From Micromonospora coriariae (lineage in GTDB: Bacteria > Actinomycetota > Actinomycetes > Mycobacteriales > Micromonosporaceae), in NCBI RefSeq assembly GCF_900091455.1, contig NZ_LT607412.1:6634001-6698000 (forward strand): a DNA stretch of 64,000 nucleotides. Reading direction: 5' to 3'. Positions 1-6,855 of this stretch are shown piece by piece. Position 1 is the stretch's first letter. Each line of letters begins with the position of its first letter. Under the pieces are notes generated by a model that did no database searches, was not told the origin of the DNA, and saw nothing but the letters and a program-made list of their open reading frames with translations. The position numbers and the translations under genes are program-made.

Positions 1-154
1 CGGCGACCTCACCGGCCAGCAGCGCGTCGGCGGCGTCGGCCGCGTCCGGGGCGGCGAAGGCGTCCAGCCCGACCGCCGGGAACCCGGCGGTACGCAGCAC
101 CACGTCGCGCCACACCGACCAACCGGTCTCGCCGAGCGGCAGCCGGTGGCTCAT
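1..154 (-). CDS. Lantibiotic dehydratase-like (LanB N-terminal) protein, partial
   Basis: Only the first 51 or so codons are present; the gene continues past the left edge. The ATG (152-154) overlaps the TGA of the upstream gene as ATGA, so the two are translationally coupled. The N-terminus (MSHRLPLGETGWSVWRDVVL) is nearly the same as the start of the LanB part of its neighbour (HRVPLGDTGWSVWRDALL), so this is a tandem paralogue. LanB glutamylation domains use glutamyl-tRNA to modify Ser/Thr in peptide substrates, but some relatives add amino acids to other acceptors. The substrate cannot be told from this fragment. The assignment rests on paralogy to the adjacent full domain. Confidence 0.6.
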   Translation of the reverse strand, partial: MSHRLPLGETGWSVWRDVVLRTAGFPAVGLDAFAAPDAADAADALLAGEVA

Positions 155-3100
155 CGGGACGACTCCGGCTCGGCGGCGTCCACGATGTGCAGCCGCAGCT
201 CACTGAAGTAGCGCCGGCCCGCGGCGTCGGGCACCCAGGCGTCGTCCGGAGTGGGCAGCATCTCGCTGACCACCAGCGTGACGTCGTCGCCGCCGTCACG
301 GCGGGCCGCCCGGACCATTGTGCAGAACAGGCTGGCGAACGCGGGGCTGCTCAGGTCGACGAAGCACGGCTTGGTCTCGGTGCCGAGCTTGACGTACACC
401 TGCTCGGGCAGGCCCAGCCCGCGCCGCCACTCGCGCACCGCCAGGTAGCGGGCCCGGTCGCCGGTCACCGTGGCCAGGCCGCACTCCCCCACCGTGGTAC
501 GCCAGGTCTGCCGGGCCACCACCAGCCGGTCCAGCGTGATCCGGGGCGTGCACGGTGCGGCGGCGACCAGCTTGAACCCGTCGACGGCATGGGTGCTCAG
601 CAGGGCGGCGCAGACCTCGGTCAGTGACCAGCGCTGCCCGTCTTCGGCCGTGACGACCAGCCGGCCGGCCTCGTCGTGCACGGTGAGCGCGACGGTGGGC
701 AGCACCCGGTCGTCCTCGGCGCCAGGTGCCGCGGCGAAGGCCAACTGCCGGTCGGTCGGGCCGGCCAGCGACTCGGCGACCCGGCTGGTGCGCCGCGGCC
801 AGTCGGTCGGGTATAGCAGCCGGATCCGGCGCGGGCCGAGGTCGGCCGCCAGCGCGGCGCGCAGCCGCTCCACGTCGGGGTGCGACGGGGTCACCGCGTA
901 GGTGTCGAACGACGGCCAGGCGGCATGCAGCTCGCCGAGCACCACTGTGTACTCGCCGCGGGTCAGCGCGTCCGCGTCGGCGGCGCAGATCTGCAGGTCG
1001 GGGCTGTGCAGCCGGGCGGTGGACCAGCGTGCCGGCGGCGGCGGGAACGCCTCGTCGACCCGGGCGGCCAGGTCCGCCACGTCCAGCCGGACCTCGGTGA
1101 CGCCCGACGGCTGCTGGGCCAGGCCGAACAGCTCGGCCCAGCGGACGGCGAACTGCGCGGCCACGGCGTCCACCGGGCGCTCCCCGGTGCCCCAGAACAG
1201 GCCCTGCACCAGGAACCACAGGTCGGACAGGGCGACGGGGCCGTCACCCGCCTCGGCGCGCAACTCGTCGTACAGCTCACGGAAGACCGCCCCGTACGCC
1301 TCCTCCAGCGCACCGGCCAGCCAGCGGGCGGCCCGCAGCAGCACGGCCAGCGGCGCCGCCAGCTCGTCCAGCAGCGGCGCGCCGAAGACCACGTCCAGGT
1401 CCCGGCTGGTGTCCTCGTAGCAGAGTGTGCGGCCGGCGTACATCTGCCCGGCCCGCCGTTGCGGCGGCTGCCCGGTCAGCTCGGTGAACGTCTCGTCGAG
1501 CGCGTCCAGGGCGGTCCGCAGCCGGTCCGGGTCACCGGCCGCCGCGGCGACCGCGTCCCGGGCGGCACACAGCCGGTCGAAGCCGGCCTCGGCGGCGGCC
1601 CGGGCCGGGGCGTCGCCGATCGCCGCGATCCGCTGGCGCAGCACCTCCTCGGCCTGCGGGTTCACCGGCAGCGCGGCGTCCCAGGTGATCAGCTCTCGCT
1701 GCACTAGTCGGTCCAGCAGCTCGTACCCGTCCTCGGGTCGGCGCAGCCCGATCGACCCGTCGGCGATCACGTCGCGGGCCGCGCGGCGGCCGTCGACGGC
1801 GGCCAGCAGCGCCGCCTCGACCGGGGACAGCGGCACCGGCGGCCGGGCCGGACGAAGCACCTCGCGCCCGGCGAGGCGCAGGTGCGGGGCGAGCCGGGGC
1901 GCCCACCACCGGCGCACCGCCGGGTCCGCGCCGATCCGCTCGGCGTACGCGGCCAGCGCCCACGACTCGAACCACACCCAGCGGCGGCGGGTCAGCGCCG
2001 CGCCCGGGCGGACCTCGGCGGCGGCCGGCAGGTCTGGGTCGATGGTGACCCAGCAGCTCGGCCCGAAGAAGCCGACAGTCTCGTTCTTGCCGCAGTACCG
2101 CTGCCAGTACTTCAGCAGCGCGCGTTCCCGCTCCCGCCGGCGCACGTTGCGGGTGGCCTCGGCGCCACCGCGGACCAGCCCGTCCAGGGCGGGCAGCGCA
2201 CCCCGGTTCTGCCAGGTGACGGCCTCCCGCAGCAGCGGGTCCGCGGCCAGGTCGGTCAGCCGACCGGCGCTGGCGAGCAGGGCCTCGTCGAATTCCTTGT
2301 CGAACTGCTCGACCCCGGCGCCGGTGACCAGCAGTTCGTCGGCGGCCGCGGCGGCCTGCGGCGCGGCCAGCAGGGTCAGCCCGTCGGCCGGGAACCCGGT
2401 GCTGCGCAGCAGGGCGTCGCGCCACACCGACCAGCCGGTGTCGCCCAACGGCACCCGGTGGGCGCCGGCCTCCGCGGCGCTCCCGGCGACGGCCGCGCGC
2501 AGGTCGGCGCGGATGGTGGCGGCCAGCGCCGGCAGCGCGTCGTGCAGGAAGAAGTGCCCGGCGTCCAGCTCGTGCAGGGTGAAGCCGGCGGTGGTGTGCT
2601 CCCGCCACGCGGCGCTCTGCTCACGGGTCACCGCCCGGTCGGTGCGGCCGCTGAACGCCACGATCGGCACCGGCAGCGGCGCATCGGGCCGGTAGCGGTA
2701 GCCGTCCACCCGGTCGAAGTCGGCACGCAGCAGCGGCATCAGCAGCTCGACGAGTTCGGGGTGCTCCAGCAGCCCGGCGGGGAGCCCACCCCCGGCATCC
2801 AGGCGGCGCAGCAGCTCGGCGTCGTCCACCTGGGACAGTCCGTCGAAGACGCTGGGCTCACTGACGTGCGGGGCGCGGGCGCCGCCGACGTAGAGGCGCA
2901 GTGGCAGCGGCCGGCCGGTGCGGCGCAGCTCGCGGACCACCTCGAAGCCGACCCGGCCGCCCATCGAGTGCCCGTAGATGGCGTACGGCCGGTCGGCCCG
3001 CCCGGCGATGGCCCGGGCCACGTCGGCGATCTGGAACCGCGGGTCCTCGCTGATCCGGTTCTCTCGGCCGGAGAGCTGCACGGGCAGCACCTCGACGTCC

Positions 3101-3216
3101 GGGCCGAGCCGGTCGGGCCAGTGTCGGAACGCGCTGGCGCCGGCACCGGCGTAGGGCAGGCAGAACAACTGCACCGGCGCCGGGTCGCGGCTGCCGGCGG
3201 AGATGAACCAGTTCAC
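151..3216 (-). CDS. Thioesterase-LanB glutamylation-domain fusion protein
   Basis: 1021 aa with two domains. Residues 1-240 form a type II thioesterase-like alpha/beta hydrolase: FCLPYAGAGASAFRHW at the N-terminus, nucleophile Ser84 in GHSMGG, and a late DAGHFFLHD histidine. Residues 255-1015 match the LanB (Lant_dehydr_N) tRNA-dependent glutamylation domain, with a conserved R-rich stretch before KNETVGFFGPSCW and a C-terminal P-x-DDAWVPDAAGRRYFSELR block typical of the end of that domain. The elimination (SpaB_C) domain is absent, so dehydration would need a partner or does not occur. The GTG start overlaps the TGA of the A-PCP-KS gene (GTGA), and the stop overlaps the next start, making one coupled operon. 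A role releasing or editing a carrier-bound intermediate while adding an aminoacyl group is inference. Confidence 0.8.
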   Translation of the reverse strand: MNWFISAGSRDPAPVQLFCLPYAGAGASAFRHWPDRLGPDVEVLPVQLSGRENRISEDPRFQIADVARAIAGRADRPYAIYGHSMGGRVGFEVVRELRRTGRPLPLRLYVGGARAPHVSEPSVFDGLSQVDDAELLRRLDAGGGLPAGLLEHPELVELLMPLLRADFDRVDGYRYRPDAPLPVPIVAFSGRTDRAVTREQSAAWREHTTAGFTLHELDAGHFFLHDALPALAATIRADLRAAVAGSAAEAGAHRVPLGDTGWSVWRDALLRSTGFPADGLTLLAAPQAAAAADELLVTGAGVEQFDKEFDEALLASAGRLTDLAADPLLREAVTWQNRGALPALDGLVRGGAEATRNVRRRERERALLKYWQRYCGKNETVGFFGPSCWVTIDPDLPAAAEVRPGAALTRRRWVWFESWALAAYAERIGADPAVRRWWAPRLAPHLRLAGREVLRPARPPVPLSPVEAALLAAVDGRRAARDVIADGSIGLRRPEDGYELLDRLVQRELITWDAALPVNPQAEEVLRQRIAAIGDAPARAAAEAGFDRLCAARDAVAAAAGDPDRLRTALDALDETFTELTGQPPQRRAGQMYAGRTLCYEDTSRDLDVVFGAPLLDELAAPLAVLLRAARWLAGALEEAYGAVFRELYDELRAEAGDGPVALSDLWFLVQGLFWGTGERPVDAVAAQFAVRWAELFGLAQQPSGVTEVRLDVADLAARVDEAFPPPPARWSTARLHSPDLQICAADADALTRGEYTVVLGELHAAWPSFDTYAVTPSHPDVERLRAALAADLGPRRIRLLYPTDWPRRTSRVAESLAGPTDRQLAFAAAPGAEDDRVLPTVALTVHDEAGRLVVTAEDGQRWSLTEVCAALLSTHAVDGFKLVAAAPCTPRITLDRLVVARQTWRTTVGECGLATVTGDRARYLAVREWRRGLGLPEQVYVKLGTETKPCFVDLSSPAFASLFCTMVRAARRDGGDDVTLVVSEMLPTPDDAWVPDAAGRRYFSELRLHIVDAAEPESSR

Positions 3217-6200
3217 CGCACGCCTTTCTGAGGGGGGTCGATCCAGTACCGCTGCCGTTGGAAGGGGTAGGTGGGCAGCGAGGTTCGCCGGATGGTGCCG
3301 GCGGGATGCAGGGTGGTGAGGTCAGCGTCGCGCCCGGCCACCCAGGCGGCGGCCAGCTCACGCAGCGGCCCGGAGTCGCCGGCCACCCGCGCGTCGGTGG
3401 TCAGCAACTCGTCGAGGGCGGCGACCGCGCCGGCCGGGTCGGTGGCCACCACGGCGGCCCGGTGGCGGAACGCGCGCCGGCCCAGCGCCAGCGTCGCGGC
3501 CGCCTCGGCCAGCGCCGGGGTGGTGCCGGCGAGGTGCCGCCGCAGCCGGATCAACGCCGCCCGCAGCGCCGCCGGGGTACGCGCCGACACCGGCAGCAGG
3601 TGCGCCCCGGCCGGCGCAGGGTCGACCGGCTCGGCCGGCGGGGCCTGCTCGACCACGACGTGCGCGTTGGTGCCGCCCAGTCCGAACGAGCTGACCCCGG
3701 CGACCCGGCGCGGCGCGTCCGGCCAGTCGCGCACCTTGGTCGGTACGTAGAACGGGCCGGCGGACAGGTCGATCTCCGGGTGCGGGCGGGTGAAGTGCAG
3801 GTTCGGTGGGATGACGCCGTGCCGCACGGCGAGCACCGCCTTGATCAGCCCGGCGATGCCGGCGGCGGCGTCCAGGTGGCCGATGGTCGTCTTCACCGAG
3901 CCGAGCGCGCAGGTCTCGGCGGGCGCGGTGCCCTGATACACCTCGTGCAGCGCGGCCACCTCGATGGCGTCGCCGAGCGGCGTACCGCTGCCGTGCGCCT
4001 CGATGAAGCGGACCTCGCCGGGGGCGACCTCGGCGGCGGCGAGCGCGCCGGCCACCGCGGCGGCCTGGCCGGCGGGCCCGGGAACGGCGTAGCCGGCTCG
4101 GTCACCGCCGTCGTTGGTGACCGCCCAGCCGGGCAGGACCGCGTAGATCCGGTCGCCGTCGGCCTGCGCGTCGGCGAGCCGGCGCAGCGCCACCACCCCC
4201 ACACCGGAGCCGAAGCCGGCCCCCTGGGCGGCCTCGTCGAACGCGCGGCAGCGGCCGTCCGGGGAGGCCAGGCCACCGGTGGTGTGCCGGTGCCGCGGCC
4301 AGGTGACGCTCACCCCACCGGCCAGCGCGATGTCGCACTGGTAGTCGGCCAGGCTCTGCGCGGCGAGGCAGACCGCCACCAGCGAGCTGGAGCAGGCGCT
4401 CTGCACGGCCACCGCCGGCCCGGTCAGCCCCAACCGGTACGCGACCTGGCCGGGCAGGTGGTCGGTGAGCTGCCGCCCGACGAGCCGGGCCTCCCAGTCG
4501 TCCGGGTCGACGTCGCCGACCACTGCCGGGTTGTCCATGAGGTGGAACAGGAAGTAGCGGTTGACCGAGGTGGCCGAGTAGACCCCGACCAGGCCGGGGA
4601 ACCGGTCCGGGTCGTGACCGGCGTCCTCCAGCGCCTCCCAGGCCGTCTCCAGGAAGAGCCGGTGCTGCGGGTCGGTGCGGGCCGCCTCCCGGTCGCCGAA
4701 GGCGAAGAACTCCGCGTCGAAGTCGGCGACCCCGTCGAGCCGGCCGGTGGCCTTGACGTGCCGGGGGTCGGCGCGCAGCCCCGGGCCGACGCCGAGCGCG
4801 GCGAGCTCCTCGTCGCTGTGGTCGTGGATGGCGTCCACCCCGGCGCACAGGTTCCACCAGAAGGTGGCCACGTCCGGCGCGCCGGGGAACCGGCCGGCGA
4901 GACCGACCACGGCGATCTCGTCGCCGGTGTACTCCCGCGCGCCGGCCGGGGCGGCGGGCGGGCTGCCGACGGTCGGCGGCGCGGCGGGCAGGGTCGACGC
5001 CGAGGCAACCGGCGGCGCCGGGGTGGTTGGTGTCGGCGGGTCGACCAACCGGGCCTGGGCGGCGATGGTCGGGTGGTCGAAAAGCCGCAGCAGCGGCACC
5101 GCCACACCGAACCGTTCGGCCAGCCGCTGCTGCACCTGGCCGAGTAGCAGGGACTGCCCGCCGACGTCGAAGAAGCTGTCGGTGCGACCGACCGCGTCCC
5201 GGTCGAGCACGGCGCACCAGATGTCGTGCACGACCCGCTCGGTCGGCGTGGCGGGCCGGTCCCCGGGTGGCACCGCCCGGGCCGGGTCCGGCAGCGCCCG
5301 CTCGTCGACCTTCCCGCTGGTGGTCAGGGGGAACTCGGCGATCGGCACGACCGCCTGGGGCAGCGCGTACTCGGGCAGTTGCCGGGCCAGGGCGGCCCGC
5401 AGCGCCGCCGGGTCCAGCGGCGGCCCGGCCGGCCGGACGTACGCCAGCACCTCGCCGTCGCGGACGATGGCGCGCACCTCGGCGATGCCCGGCTCGGCGG
5501 CGAGCACCGACTCGATCTCGGTCAGCTCGATCCGGAACCCGCGCACCTTCACCTGCCGGTCCAGCCGGCCGAGGCAGCGCAGCTCGCCGGTGGGCAGCAG
5601 CTCGCCCAGGTCGCCGGTGCGGTACAGCGGCACGCCGTCGGGGTCGTGGCCGAACCGGTCGCTGGCCCGGTCGAGGTAGCCGGGGGCGAGGTGCCGGCTG
5701 CGTACGACTATCTCGCCGTCCGGCGCGAGCCGCAGCGCGTACCCGGGCAGGGCGGTGCCGATCGGCAGCGGGCCGGTGGCCGCCGGGTCGACGTCGGCCA
5801 GCGGCAGCGCGTACCGGGCGGCGAAGGTCATCTCGGTGGCCCCGTAGCCGTTGACCAGGACGCAGCCGGGGGCGAAGCGGCCCCGGGCGCGGGCGGCGTC
5901 GGCGTAGTTGGCCTGCTCGCCGCCGAGCAGCACCACCCGGATCCGGTCCAGCCGCTCGATGCCCGGGGTGTCCAACAGGTACCGGAAGACGGTCGGCGTG
6001 GAGTGGTAGACGGTGACGCCGTGCCGGGCCAGCTGCTCGACGGCGTACGTCAGCCCGTGCCGGCGCAGGTCGACCGGGACGACGGTGGCCCCGGTGAGCA
6101 GCGCCGGGTGCAGGTCGGGGATGGCCGCGTCGAAGCTGAACGAGGCGAGCAGGCTCAATCGGTCGTCCGGCCGCAGGGCGAGCAGGGCGATCTGGTTGTC

Positions 6201-6725
6201 CACCACATGCGTCAGGTTGCGGTGGCTCTGCCCGACCGCCTTGGGCCGCCCGGTGGAACCGGAGGTGAACAGCACGTACGCGAGCGCGTCCGAGGCCACC
6301 GGCACCGGCCGCAGCGGCGCGGGCCGCACGTCGACTGCCGGAACGACCCGCAGGCCGGGCCGGTCGGCGGCGAGCCGACGCGCCAGCTCGGTGTGCTCGC
6401 CACCGCAGAGCAGGACTGTGACGTCGGCGCCGTCGAGCAGGTGCCGCAGCCGCTGCTCGGGGAAGCCGGGGTCGAGCGGCACGTAGGCGGCGCCCGCGGC
6501 GAGGGTGCCGAGGATGGCCGCGATGGTGCCGGCGCCGTGCGCGGTCAGCAGGCCGACCCGGTCACCGGGCCGGACGCCGGCCGCGGCCAGCAGGCCGGCG
6601 TGCCCCCCGGCCAGGCCGGCGAGGGCGGCGTAGCTGAGCGGGCCGGTGTCGCCGAGTACGGCGGGATGGTCGGGACGAGCGGCGGCGGCATCGCCGAAGC
6701 GATGGATCAGCGTCGAGGTTCCCAT
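3213..6725 (-). CDS. Hybrid NRPS-PKS loading module A-PCP-KS (no condensation or AT domain)
   Basis: About 1170 aa. Residues 1-480 form an adenylation domain with FTSGSTGRPKAVG (A3), FSFDAAIPDL (A4), NGYGATEMTF (A5), YRTGDL and TSGKVDERALP. A carrier domain follows with phosphopantetheine Ser near 524 in VGGQSLL. A ketosynthase runs from about 590 to 1010 with Cys near 777 (SACSSSL), His in EAHGSGTPLGD and His in IGHLDAAAG, so the C-H-H triad is complete. The KS is followed by a linker that goes straight to LPTYPFQRQRYW; the acyltransferase is missing, as in trans-AT KS units. With no C domain it fits a starter module that activates an amino acid and elongates it once. ATG 6725 is chosen because typical A domains begin close to TLIHRFGDAAAARPDHPAV; an in-frame GTG at 6764 would add 13 residues. 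Neither start has a strong Shine-Dalgarno. Confidence 0.85.
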   Translation of the reverse strand: MGTSTLIHRFGDAAAARPDHPAVLGDTGPLSYAALAGLAGGHAGLLAAAGVRPGDRVGLLTAHGAGTIAAILGTLAAGAAYVPLDPGFPEQRLRHLLDGADVTVLLCGGEHTELARRLAADRPGLRVVPAVDVRPAPLRPVPVASDALAYVLFTSGSTGRPKAVGQSHRNLTHVVDNQIALLALRPDDRLSLLASFSFDAAIPDLHPALLTGATVVPVDLRRHGLTYAVEQLARHGVTVYHSTPTVFRYLLDTPGIERLDRIRVVLLGGEQANYADAARARGRFAPGCVLVNGYGATEMTFAARYALPLADVDPAATGPLPIGTALPGYALRLAPDGEIVVRSRHLAPGYLDRASDRFGHDPDGVPLYRTGDLGELLPTGELRCLGRLDRQVKVRGFRIELTEIESVLAAEPGIAEVRAIVRDGEVLAYVRPAGPPLDPAALRAALARQLPEYALPQAVVPIAEFPLTTSGKVDERALPDPARAVPPGDRPATPTERVVHDIWCAVLDRDAVGRTDSFFDVGGQSLLLGQVQQRLAERFGVAVPLLRLFDHPTIAAQARLVDPPTPTTPAPPVASASTLPAAPPTVGSPPAAPAGAREYTGDEIAVVGLAGRFPGAPDVATFWWNLCAGVDAIHDHSDEELAALGVGPGLRADPRHVKATGRLDGVADFDAEFFAFGDREAARTDPQHRLFLETAWEALEDAGHDPDRFPGLVGVYSATSVNRYFLFHLMDNPAVVGDVDPDDWEARLVGRQLTDHLPGQVAYRLGLTGPAVAVQSACSSSLVAVCLAAQSLADYQCDIALAGGVSVTWPRHRHTTGGLASPDGRCRAFDEAAQGAGFGSGVGVVALRRLADAQADGDRIYAVLPGWAVTNDGGDRAGYAVPGPAGQAAAVAGALAAAEVAPGEVRFIEAHGSGTPLGDAIEVAALHEVYQGTAPAETCALGSVKTTIGHLDAAAGIAGLIKAVLAVRHGVIPPNLHFTRPHPEIDLSAGPFYVPTKVRDWPDAPRRVAGVSSFGLGGTNAHVVVEQAPPAEPVDPAPAGAHLLPVSARTPAALRAALIRLRRHLAGTTPALAEAAATLALGRRAFRHRAAVVATDPAGAVAALDELLTTDARVAGDSGPLRELAAAWVAGRDADLTTLHPAGTIRRTSLPTYPFQRQRYWIDPPQKGVR

Positions 6726-6855
6726 TTCAGGACGCGGACACCGATCCACAACAGACGGGCGCACGGCAATCGGCAGGCATGATCATGATCCCCCCCAGGA
6801 CTTCACAATGGAACGAGCATAGGGTTCGATGACTGCCGGGAAAGATCATCGATTA

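What the first reader, a model, noticed from the sequence alone, without database searches (positions are those of the whole stretch)
1..3216. Thioesterase fused to a split LanB glutamylation domain, next to a tandem LanB paralogue
Seen: one polypeptide with an intact thioesterase (GHSMGG) and a full LanB N-type domain that lacks the elimination domain, coupled by ATGA to a second LanB-like gene. Known: LanB N-domains glutamylate Ser/Thr of ribosomal peptides using Glu-tRNA, and small relatives append amino acids to peptide C-termini. Inference: here tRNA-dependent aminoacylation may act on a carrier-bound or thioesterase-released NRPS/PKS intermediate rather than a RiPP precursor; no precursor peptide is visible.
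Basis: partly seen in the sequence, partly recalled or inferred. Interest (0 to 1): 0.85.

Follow-up and report, generated by a model that had tools for sequence, protein, structure and literature searches.

The report
Thioesterase-fused aminoacyl-tRNA ligase in assembly line
A Micromonospora-like bacterium carries two side-by-side enzymes, one fused to a thioesterase, that look like they take amino acids from transfer RNA and attach them to a small molecule built by a peptide/polyketide assembly line; one such enzyme has been studied elsewhere, but this widespread version lacks the step that explains how that one works.

Summary
Window 151-3216 (minus) is one 1021-aa protein: type II thioesterase plus complete LanB N-type domain. 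It is coupled by ATGA to a 769-aa paralogue lying almost wholly left of the window, in an eight-gene NRPS-PKS operon with no elimination domain and no room for a precursor gene. The fusion is no artefact: 43 of 75 related loci have it. In 154 of 154 distinct relatives the domain keeps four residues (Asp, Glu, His, Arg) of the ATP site of peptide aminoacyl-tRNA ligases (PEARLs); all four are missing in 21 of 21 genuine LanBs, one from this genome. So these are most likely ATP- and aminoacyl-tRNA-dependent amide ligases on NRPS-PKS intermediates, not glutamylating enzymes. This has a published precedent (SnaE, threopeptin; TE fusions are mentioned there), and the orthologous operon is in print as an orphan. 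New is the variant: tandem ligases and a core (A-PCP-C-PCP, KS without AT, KS-AT) in 61 of 75 loci of 15 named genera, where none of 95 readable C-domain motifs is the ureido-forming type that supplies SnaE's carboxylate. Where these ligases get their carboxylate is open; the fused thioesterase is the obvious, untested candidate.

The parts
151..3216 (-). g25: TE-LanB fusion, 1021 aa, GTG start
2503..3171 (-). type II thioesterase domain (residues 16-238); Ser84, Asp193, His221 conserved in 49 of 49 distinct fused TEs
154..2460 (-). LanB N-type / PEARL-like ligase domain (residues 253-1021)
2086..2109 (-). YWQRYCGK motif: Tyr370, Arg373 = tRNA 3'-end residues (BhaBC-Trp Tyr205, Arg208); Lys377
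925..999 (-). Asp740 ... Glu762-Leu-His764: predicted Mg/ATP site (BhaBC-Trp Asp558, Glu575, His577)
193..204 (-). SELR motif: Glu1006 and Arg1008 (BhaBC-Trp Glu813, Arg815; TglB Glu801, Arg803)
1..154 (-). 5' end of g24, the second LanB-like gene (769 aa, genome 6631845-6634154, continues left of the window)
3213..6764 (-). g26: A-PCP-KS without AT, first gene of the operon

Best explanation
g25 and g24 are PEARL-type enzymes serving an NRPS-PKS line. Each uses ATP to phosphorylate a free carboxylate of an assembly-line intermediate (or of its released form) and condenses it with the amino group of an aminoacyl-tRNA. The tRNA ester is then hydrolysed, leaving the substrate longer by one residue. 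In g25 the fused type II thioesterase most plausibly hydrolyses a carrier-bound thioester next to the ligase, freeing that carboxylate. The second ligase most plausibly adds a second residue. Shown by sequence: operon, fusion, intact TE triad, intact PEARL-type ATP and tRNA residues in both copies. Inferred: the reaction itself (from homology to SnaE and PEARLs). Speculative: the TE-to-ligase hand-over and one residue per ligase copy. The confidence is for the ligase reading; the hand-over is rated in the section on the most novel reading. The amino acids added and the product are unknown.
For: In 154 of 154 distinct LanB rows the equivalents of BhaBC-Trp Asp558, Glu575, His577, Glu813 and Arg815 are invariant. 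In 21 of 21 genuine LanBs linked to an elimination domain, Asp, Glu, His and Arg815 are 0 of 21, while the tRNA-binding Arg is 21 of 21; Glu813 is also 21 of 21, so it does not discriminate. SnaE, whose in-frame deletion stops Thr addition, is 31% identical end to end and has the same residues. Related loci: 71 of 75 have C, KS, PCP or AT domains. TE: fused in 43 of 75 loci, a stand-alone gene in 16; with one ligase per locus the fused state changes at least 7 times over 39 tips of the tree, though that tree is weakly supported. Elimination domain: none in the 36 of 75 loci whose whole genomes (35) were searched with PF14028, although 28 of the 35 have one elsewhere (positions compared).
Against: No biochemistry for this clade. 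No carboxylate source is identified: 0 of 99 C-domain motifs (95 readable) in the 75 loci is ureido-type, so SnaE's chain-reversal route does not apply. Twelve of 75 loci show no TE in the held DNA, and 4 only a TE inside an NRPS protein. Type II TEs commonly just edit mis-primed carriers (general knowledge). Gln201 of BhaBC-Trp is not kept in these two proteins (read); Arg197 and Arg429 were not tested. A more distant relative outside the 154 rows (L043, 27% identical) has Arg where Glu575 should be. The structure model could not be made.
Confidence: 0.72

Rival explanations
1. Split LanB glutamylation: the domain uses Glu-tRNA to glutamylate a hydroxyl (for example the KR-made alcohol), with elimination supplied by another enzyme, so the pair dehydrates an NRPS/PKS intermediate.
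For: Pfam Lant_dehydr_N match; tRNA-binding residues shared with true LanBs; the operon's PKS has a KR.
Against: Four ligase-site residues absent from 21 of 21 true LanBs are invariant here; no elimination domain beside the genes; the PKS module has its own DH.
Confidence: 0.08
2. Classical PEARL on a ribosomal scaffold peptide encoded elsewhere, the NRPS-PKS acting on the released product.
For: Same active site as BhaBC-Trp and TglB.
Against: No room for a precursor gene between the operon genes; nearly all related loci are NRPS/PKS loci (71 of 75); the SnaE authors report no lanthipeptide or PEARL carrier peptide gene in such clusters. Small ORFs in the flanks were not searched systematically here.
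Confidence: 0.07
3. Same ligase chemistry, but the thioesterase is an ordinary editing enzyme fused for convenience; the ligases act on carrier-bound chains or on a side-chain carboxylate of a monomer, without release. (Not exclusive of the ligase reading; it differs in the role of the TE.)
For: In 10 distinct relatives LanB is fused directly behind C-A-PCP, pointing to on-line action; stand-alone TE genes are common (16 of 75); the A domain of A-PCP-KS has an unusual, strongly conserved code (DAPHLGGFA/V in 50 of 51 rows, duplicates not removed).
Against: Does not explain why TE and LanB are so often one protein (43 of 75, with at least 7 changes of state).
Confidence: 0.4
4. Sequencing-error or assembly fusion of two genes.
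For: In 16 of 75 loci the TE is a stand-alone gene.
Against: The same fusion stands in 43 of 75 loci, 36 of them Micromonospora and 7 from six other genera.
Confidence: 0.01

Closest known systems
SnaE / threopeptin (sna) cluster of Stackebrandtia nassauensis (Yu & van der Donk 2024, PMC11212132; parts 1-3 of 6 read)
   Same: LanB-like enzyme in an NRPS-PKS cluster with a TE; same PEARL residues; 31% identity. [quoted passage not shown]
   Different: One ligase, not two; SnaA is A-T-C(EHHLVHDG)-A-T and frees a carboxylate by ureido formation (recovered here as L135). This clade has A-PCP-C(xHHAVFDG or LHHAVADG)-PCP, an AT-less KS and no ureido signature.
PEARLs BhaBC-Trp, TglB, AmmB (PMC11962472: abstract and sections 9-11; review PMC12945691: passages)
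   Same: ATP and tRNA site residues; C-terminal amide extension expected.
   Different: These PEARLs extend ribosomal scaffold peptides; no scaffold gene is seen here.
pks/nrps-3, orphan cluster of Micromonospora okii TP-A0468 and strain TP-A0316 (PMC8698034, passages of Tables 2 and 4)
   Same: Listed as A/T-KS/DH, A/T-C/T, KS/ATm/KR/DH/ACP, C/Aasn/T, C/Aser/T-Te: the same operon layout (M. okii is L056 here).
   Different: The passages seen do not mention the LanB or TE-LanB genes; ORF numbers jump from 17-59 to 17-56 where they would lie.
Class I LanB glutamylation domains (TbtB met; NisB, MibB by name only)
   Same: Sequence family and tRNA 3'-end residues.
   Different: Ligase-site Asp, Glu, His, Arg missing in 21 of 21 tested LanBs; an elimination partner is needed.
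Livipeptin, L/F-transferase with C-minus NRPS (PMC10548850, passages)
   Same: An aminoacyl-tRNA-using enzyme works with an NRPS, sometimes fused.
   Different: Unrelated enzyme family that acylates amino groups (general knowledge).

Membership tests
PEARL-type ligase | ATP/carboxylate site (BhaBC-Trp Asp558, Glu575, Glu813, Arg815) | tested here: met
   all four invariant in 154 of 154 distinct rows, both paralogues included; Asp558, Glu575 and Arg815 are 0 of 21 in true LanBs, Glu813 is shared by 21 of 21 and so does not discriminate
PEARL-type ligase | tRNA CCA-end residues Tyr205, Arg208 | tested here: met
   Arg 154 of 154, Tyr 152 of 154; shared with true LanBs
PEARL-type ligase | Gln201 contact to C74 | tested here: not met
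   the aligned residue is Ala in g25 and Ser in g24 (read); whether it defines the family is unclear
PEARL-type ligase | no elimination domain in the neighbourhood | tested here: met
   own genome: only match about 120 kb away; 0 of 36 related loci tested by PF14028
PEARL-type ligase | ATP- and aminoacyl-tRNA-dependent amide formation | not testable with these tools
   needs an assay
SnaE-type pathway (chain reversal, then ligation) | ureido C domain EHHXXHDG in the cluster | tested here: not met
   0 of 99 motifs, 4 unreadable; own C domains WHHAVFDG, VHHAVFDS, QHHIVGDG. L135, L035, L151 were read as EHHLVHDG, EHHFIHDG, EHHFVHDG by the same method
Split class I LanB | partner elimination domain PF14028 | tested here: not met
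   the only PF14028 gene of the genome is about 120 kb away in a YcaO cluster with its own LanB
RiPP pathway | precursor peptide gene | tested here: inconclusive
   no room between the operon genes; flanks not searched systematically

The most novel reading that the evidence does not exclude
A release-and-re-extend NRPS-PKS: the fused thioesterase cuts the chain off its carrier, and the attached ligase and its tandem copies then add one residue each from aminoacyl-tRNA, so that the number of ligase genes (one to three) sets the length of a tRNA-derived tail. No ureido chain reversal is involved.
Probability: 0.2. Interest if true: 0.82.

Novelty: new variant of a known kind. Interest (0 to 1): 0.55.

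Why it matters
Published work explains one LanB-like enzyme in an NRPS-PKS cluster by a ureido step that exposes a carboxylate. Here is a conserved clade (61 of the 75 loci examined share the three-part core) in which no ureido-type C domain was seen. It makes a clear question testable: where does a tRNA-dependent ligase find its carboxylate on an otherwise ordinary assembly line? The natural TE-LanB fusions, the tandem copies and the strains that lost one copy by recombination are ready-made test material.

Tried and rejected
Rejected: sequencing-error fusion (same fusion in 43 of 75 loci); canonical split LanB; ureido chain reversal as in sna (0 of 99 motifs, 95 readable). A tRNA gene belonging to the cluster: ARAGORN on 33 loci gave four predictions, each of a different tRNA in a different locus, so no support. 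Naming the first A-domain substrate failed: codes DAPHLGGFA/V and the DMTH type match nothing I can recall, and its closest solved sequence, linear gramicidin synthase subunit A, did not help. Partner genes of clusters with a stand-alone first A domain: DUF6002 and a second protein without Pfam, NCBIfam or PDB match; DUF6002 is in no paper of the held library and was not found in this genome (no control rang, so this does not show absence). The tree (FastTree, 76 rows) separates the core clade from SnaE, but the core node has support 0.518 only. A single-sequence BLAST for the elimination protein found nothing in 116 loci but is insensitive (a like search reached 3 of 21 control LanBs), so I replaced it by PF14028 searches.

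Structure prediction of g25 with alignment A2 was asked for 26 times and never accepted ('100 jobs are waiting'). No fold claim is made. One search hit its time limit and was repeated on fewer ORFs.
Full report
Observation. The window lies at 6634001-6698000 of a single-contig genome of 6,929,687 bases; of the 75 named related loci, 42 are Micromonospora. Residues 16-238 are a type II thioesterase. Residues 253-1021 match Lant_dehydr_N over nearly the whole profile when given alone (99.9 bits); the hit was lost in hmmscan of the full protein, so annotation could miss it. The next gene starts at window 154 with an ATGA overlap and encodes a 769-aa paralogue, 57% identical.

Operon. Extending left, the genes in transcription order are: g26 A-PCP-KS (window 3213-6764), g25 TE-LanB, g24 LanB, g23 A-PCP-C-PCP, g22 KS-AT-KR-DH-PCP, g21 TauD-type dioxygenase, g20 C-A-PCP, g19 C-A-PCP-TE-MFS. 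The A-domain codes of g20 (DLTKVGEVG) and g19 (DVWHISLID) read as Asn and Ser (code meanings recalled; codes); the domain calls printed for the same layout in M. okii agree. That paper lists the cluster as orphan 'pks/nrps-3' without, in the passages I saw, naming the LanB genes.

Not a glutamylation domain. Work on PEARLs places ATP and the substrate carboxylate at Asp558, Glu575, Glu813 and Arg815 of BhaBC-Trp and the tRNA 3' end at Arg208 and Tyr205; a review adds His577 and Lys763. From the loci (L043 left out) I took 175 LanB ORFs, dropped 10 short and 2 odd-length ones and 9 duplicates, and kept 154 distinct rows. The equivalents of Asp558, Glu575, His577, Arg208, Glu813 and Arg815 are invariant, 154 of 154; Lys763 is Lys in 150 and Arg in 4; Tyr205 is Tyr in 152. 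L043 holds more distant LanB-like genes; its one aligned row keeps Asp558, His577, Glu813 and Arg815 but has Arg for Glu575. As a control I took 21 genuine LanBs linked to an elimination domain: the split LanB of this genome (about 120 kb away, next to PF14028 and YcaO genes) and 20 picked by hand from a search in which 88 of 150 family genomes had PF14028. They keep the tRNA Arg (21 of 21) and Glu813 (21 of 21) but have Asp558 0 of 21, Glu575 0 of 21 (9 of them a gap), His577 0 of 21 and Arg815 0 of 21. These sequences are divergent, so single columns carry some risk; the three closest controls (one from this genome) align cleanly and agree. Both paralogues here are therefore PEARL-like by active site.

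Precedent. SnaE of S. nassauensis, whose deletion stops Thr addition in the threopeptin pathway, is 31% identical end to end to the g25 domain. I recovered its cluster (L135, contig 6,841,557 bp) by layout; its C-domain signature EHHLVHDG is the one printed in the paper. [quoted passage not shown] So neither the enzyme type nor the fusion is new.

What differs. A pattern scan of 84,980 species genomes found 454 relatives; the best 80 gave 75 loci, which I examined. 71 of 75 hold C, KS, PCP or AT domains; L098, L115, L117 and L118 show only an A-like hit. 65 have A-PCP-C-PCP, 42 A-PCP-KS, 24 more a stand-alone KS, 69 KS-AT; 61, of 15 named genera, have A-PCP-C-PCP, an AT-less KS and KS-AT together. 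The 10 without A-PCP-C-PCP are L066, L067, L098, L106, L107, L108, L110, L115, L117 and L118; L107 has A-PCP-C-A-PCP instead and L108 the like in two frames. None of 99 C motifs (4 unreadable) is ureido-type; all 65 core C domains read xHHAVFDG (61) or LHHAVADG (4). The ureido signature was found by the same method in L035, L135 and L151. TE is fused in 43 loci, a stand-alone gene in 16, only inside an NRPS protein in 4, and not seen in 12; fused TEs keep Ser/Asp/His in 49 of 49 distinct copies. Full-length ligase ORFs on the match strand number one in 37 loci, two in 37, three in one; L075 also has two ligase domains in one ORF. An elimination domain was absent from all 36 loci tested with PF14028, though 28 of their 35 genomes have one elsewhere (positions compared by eye, and contig lengths where the numbers could overlap).

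The second copy can be lost. L086 has one copy without such a mark. L094, L096, L103 and L075 are no clear cases: the tails of L096 (11 against 3) and L075 (9 against 3) lean to g24, but their bodies lean to neither copy, and L075 has further copies that were not counted. In 37 two-copy loci only ten columns are fixed differently (97% or more in each copy) between g24 and g25.

Mechanism. A PEARL needs a free carboxylate. In sna the ureido step supplies it; here no such step is seen. Candidates are hydrolysis by the fused TE, a side-chain carboxylate of a monomer, or a carrier-bound acid. The frequent TE-LanB union favours the first (43 of 75 loci; at least 7 changes of state over 39 tips with one ligase per locus, on a tree whose core node has support 0.518). 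C-A-PCP-LanB fusions in 10 distinct relatives suggest that on-line action also occurs in the wider family.

Limits. No structure model. Gene starts come from a simple GC-frame caller. The 75 loci are the best hits, not a random sample; in a wider look 128 of 250 genomes of this family had some relative at E 0.001 or better, many of them weak. Literature was searched only in the open library; no report of this clade's chemistry was found there.

Noticed in passing
L076, L082, L097, L104, L109, L113 and 18 other loci: The AT-less KS has its second catalytic His replaced by Asn (GN for GH) in 24 of 73 distinct copies, all stand-alone KS; the other 49 (47 fused A-PCP-KS copies, that of this genome among them, and 2 counted as stand-alone) keep His, as do 81 of 81 KS of KS-AT genes. 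It suggests an altered, perhaps transferring, KS.
   Followed up: partly
L109:3426-4793, L113:8563-9534 and similar: Among 26 hand-picked loci, a DUF6002 protein recurs in 9 genera and a protein with a Rossmann-like start in 11 genera, mostly in clusters with a stand-alone KS; perhaps they make the unusual first monomer.
   Followed up: partly
window 3213-6764: After the KS, g26 ends in sequence that looks like KS-AT and post-AT linker with no AT between: the AT seems to have been cut out (read from the sequence; motif meaning recalled).
   Followed up: no
genome 6613035-6618545 (L013:9035-14545): Terminal NRPS module fused to a TE and then to an MFS exporter in one 1836-aa protein; the same layout in L031, L082, L083, L090 and L102.
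   Followed up: no
L124:5989-17726 (genome about 6.760-6.772 Mb): Separate RiPP-type cluster with a true split LanB, PF14028 protein, M50-like peptidase and two YcaO proteins; precursor not sought.
   Followed up: partly
L137, L140-L145, L147, L148, L150, L037: Another family: C-A-PCP-LanB in one protein with further C-A-PCP genes beside it, and no ureido signature in the readable C domains.
   Followed up: no
L107, L108, L041, L042: LanB clusters whose NRPS is A-PCP-C-A-PCP or nearly so; second-A codes beginning DPRH turn up in such proteins. In L107 and L108 no separate A-PCP or AT-less KS is seen, as if a cis A domain replaced them.
   Followed up: no
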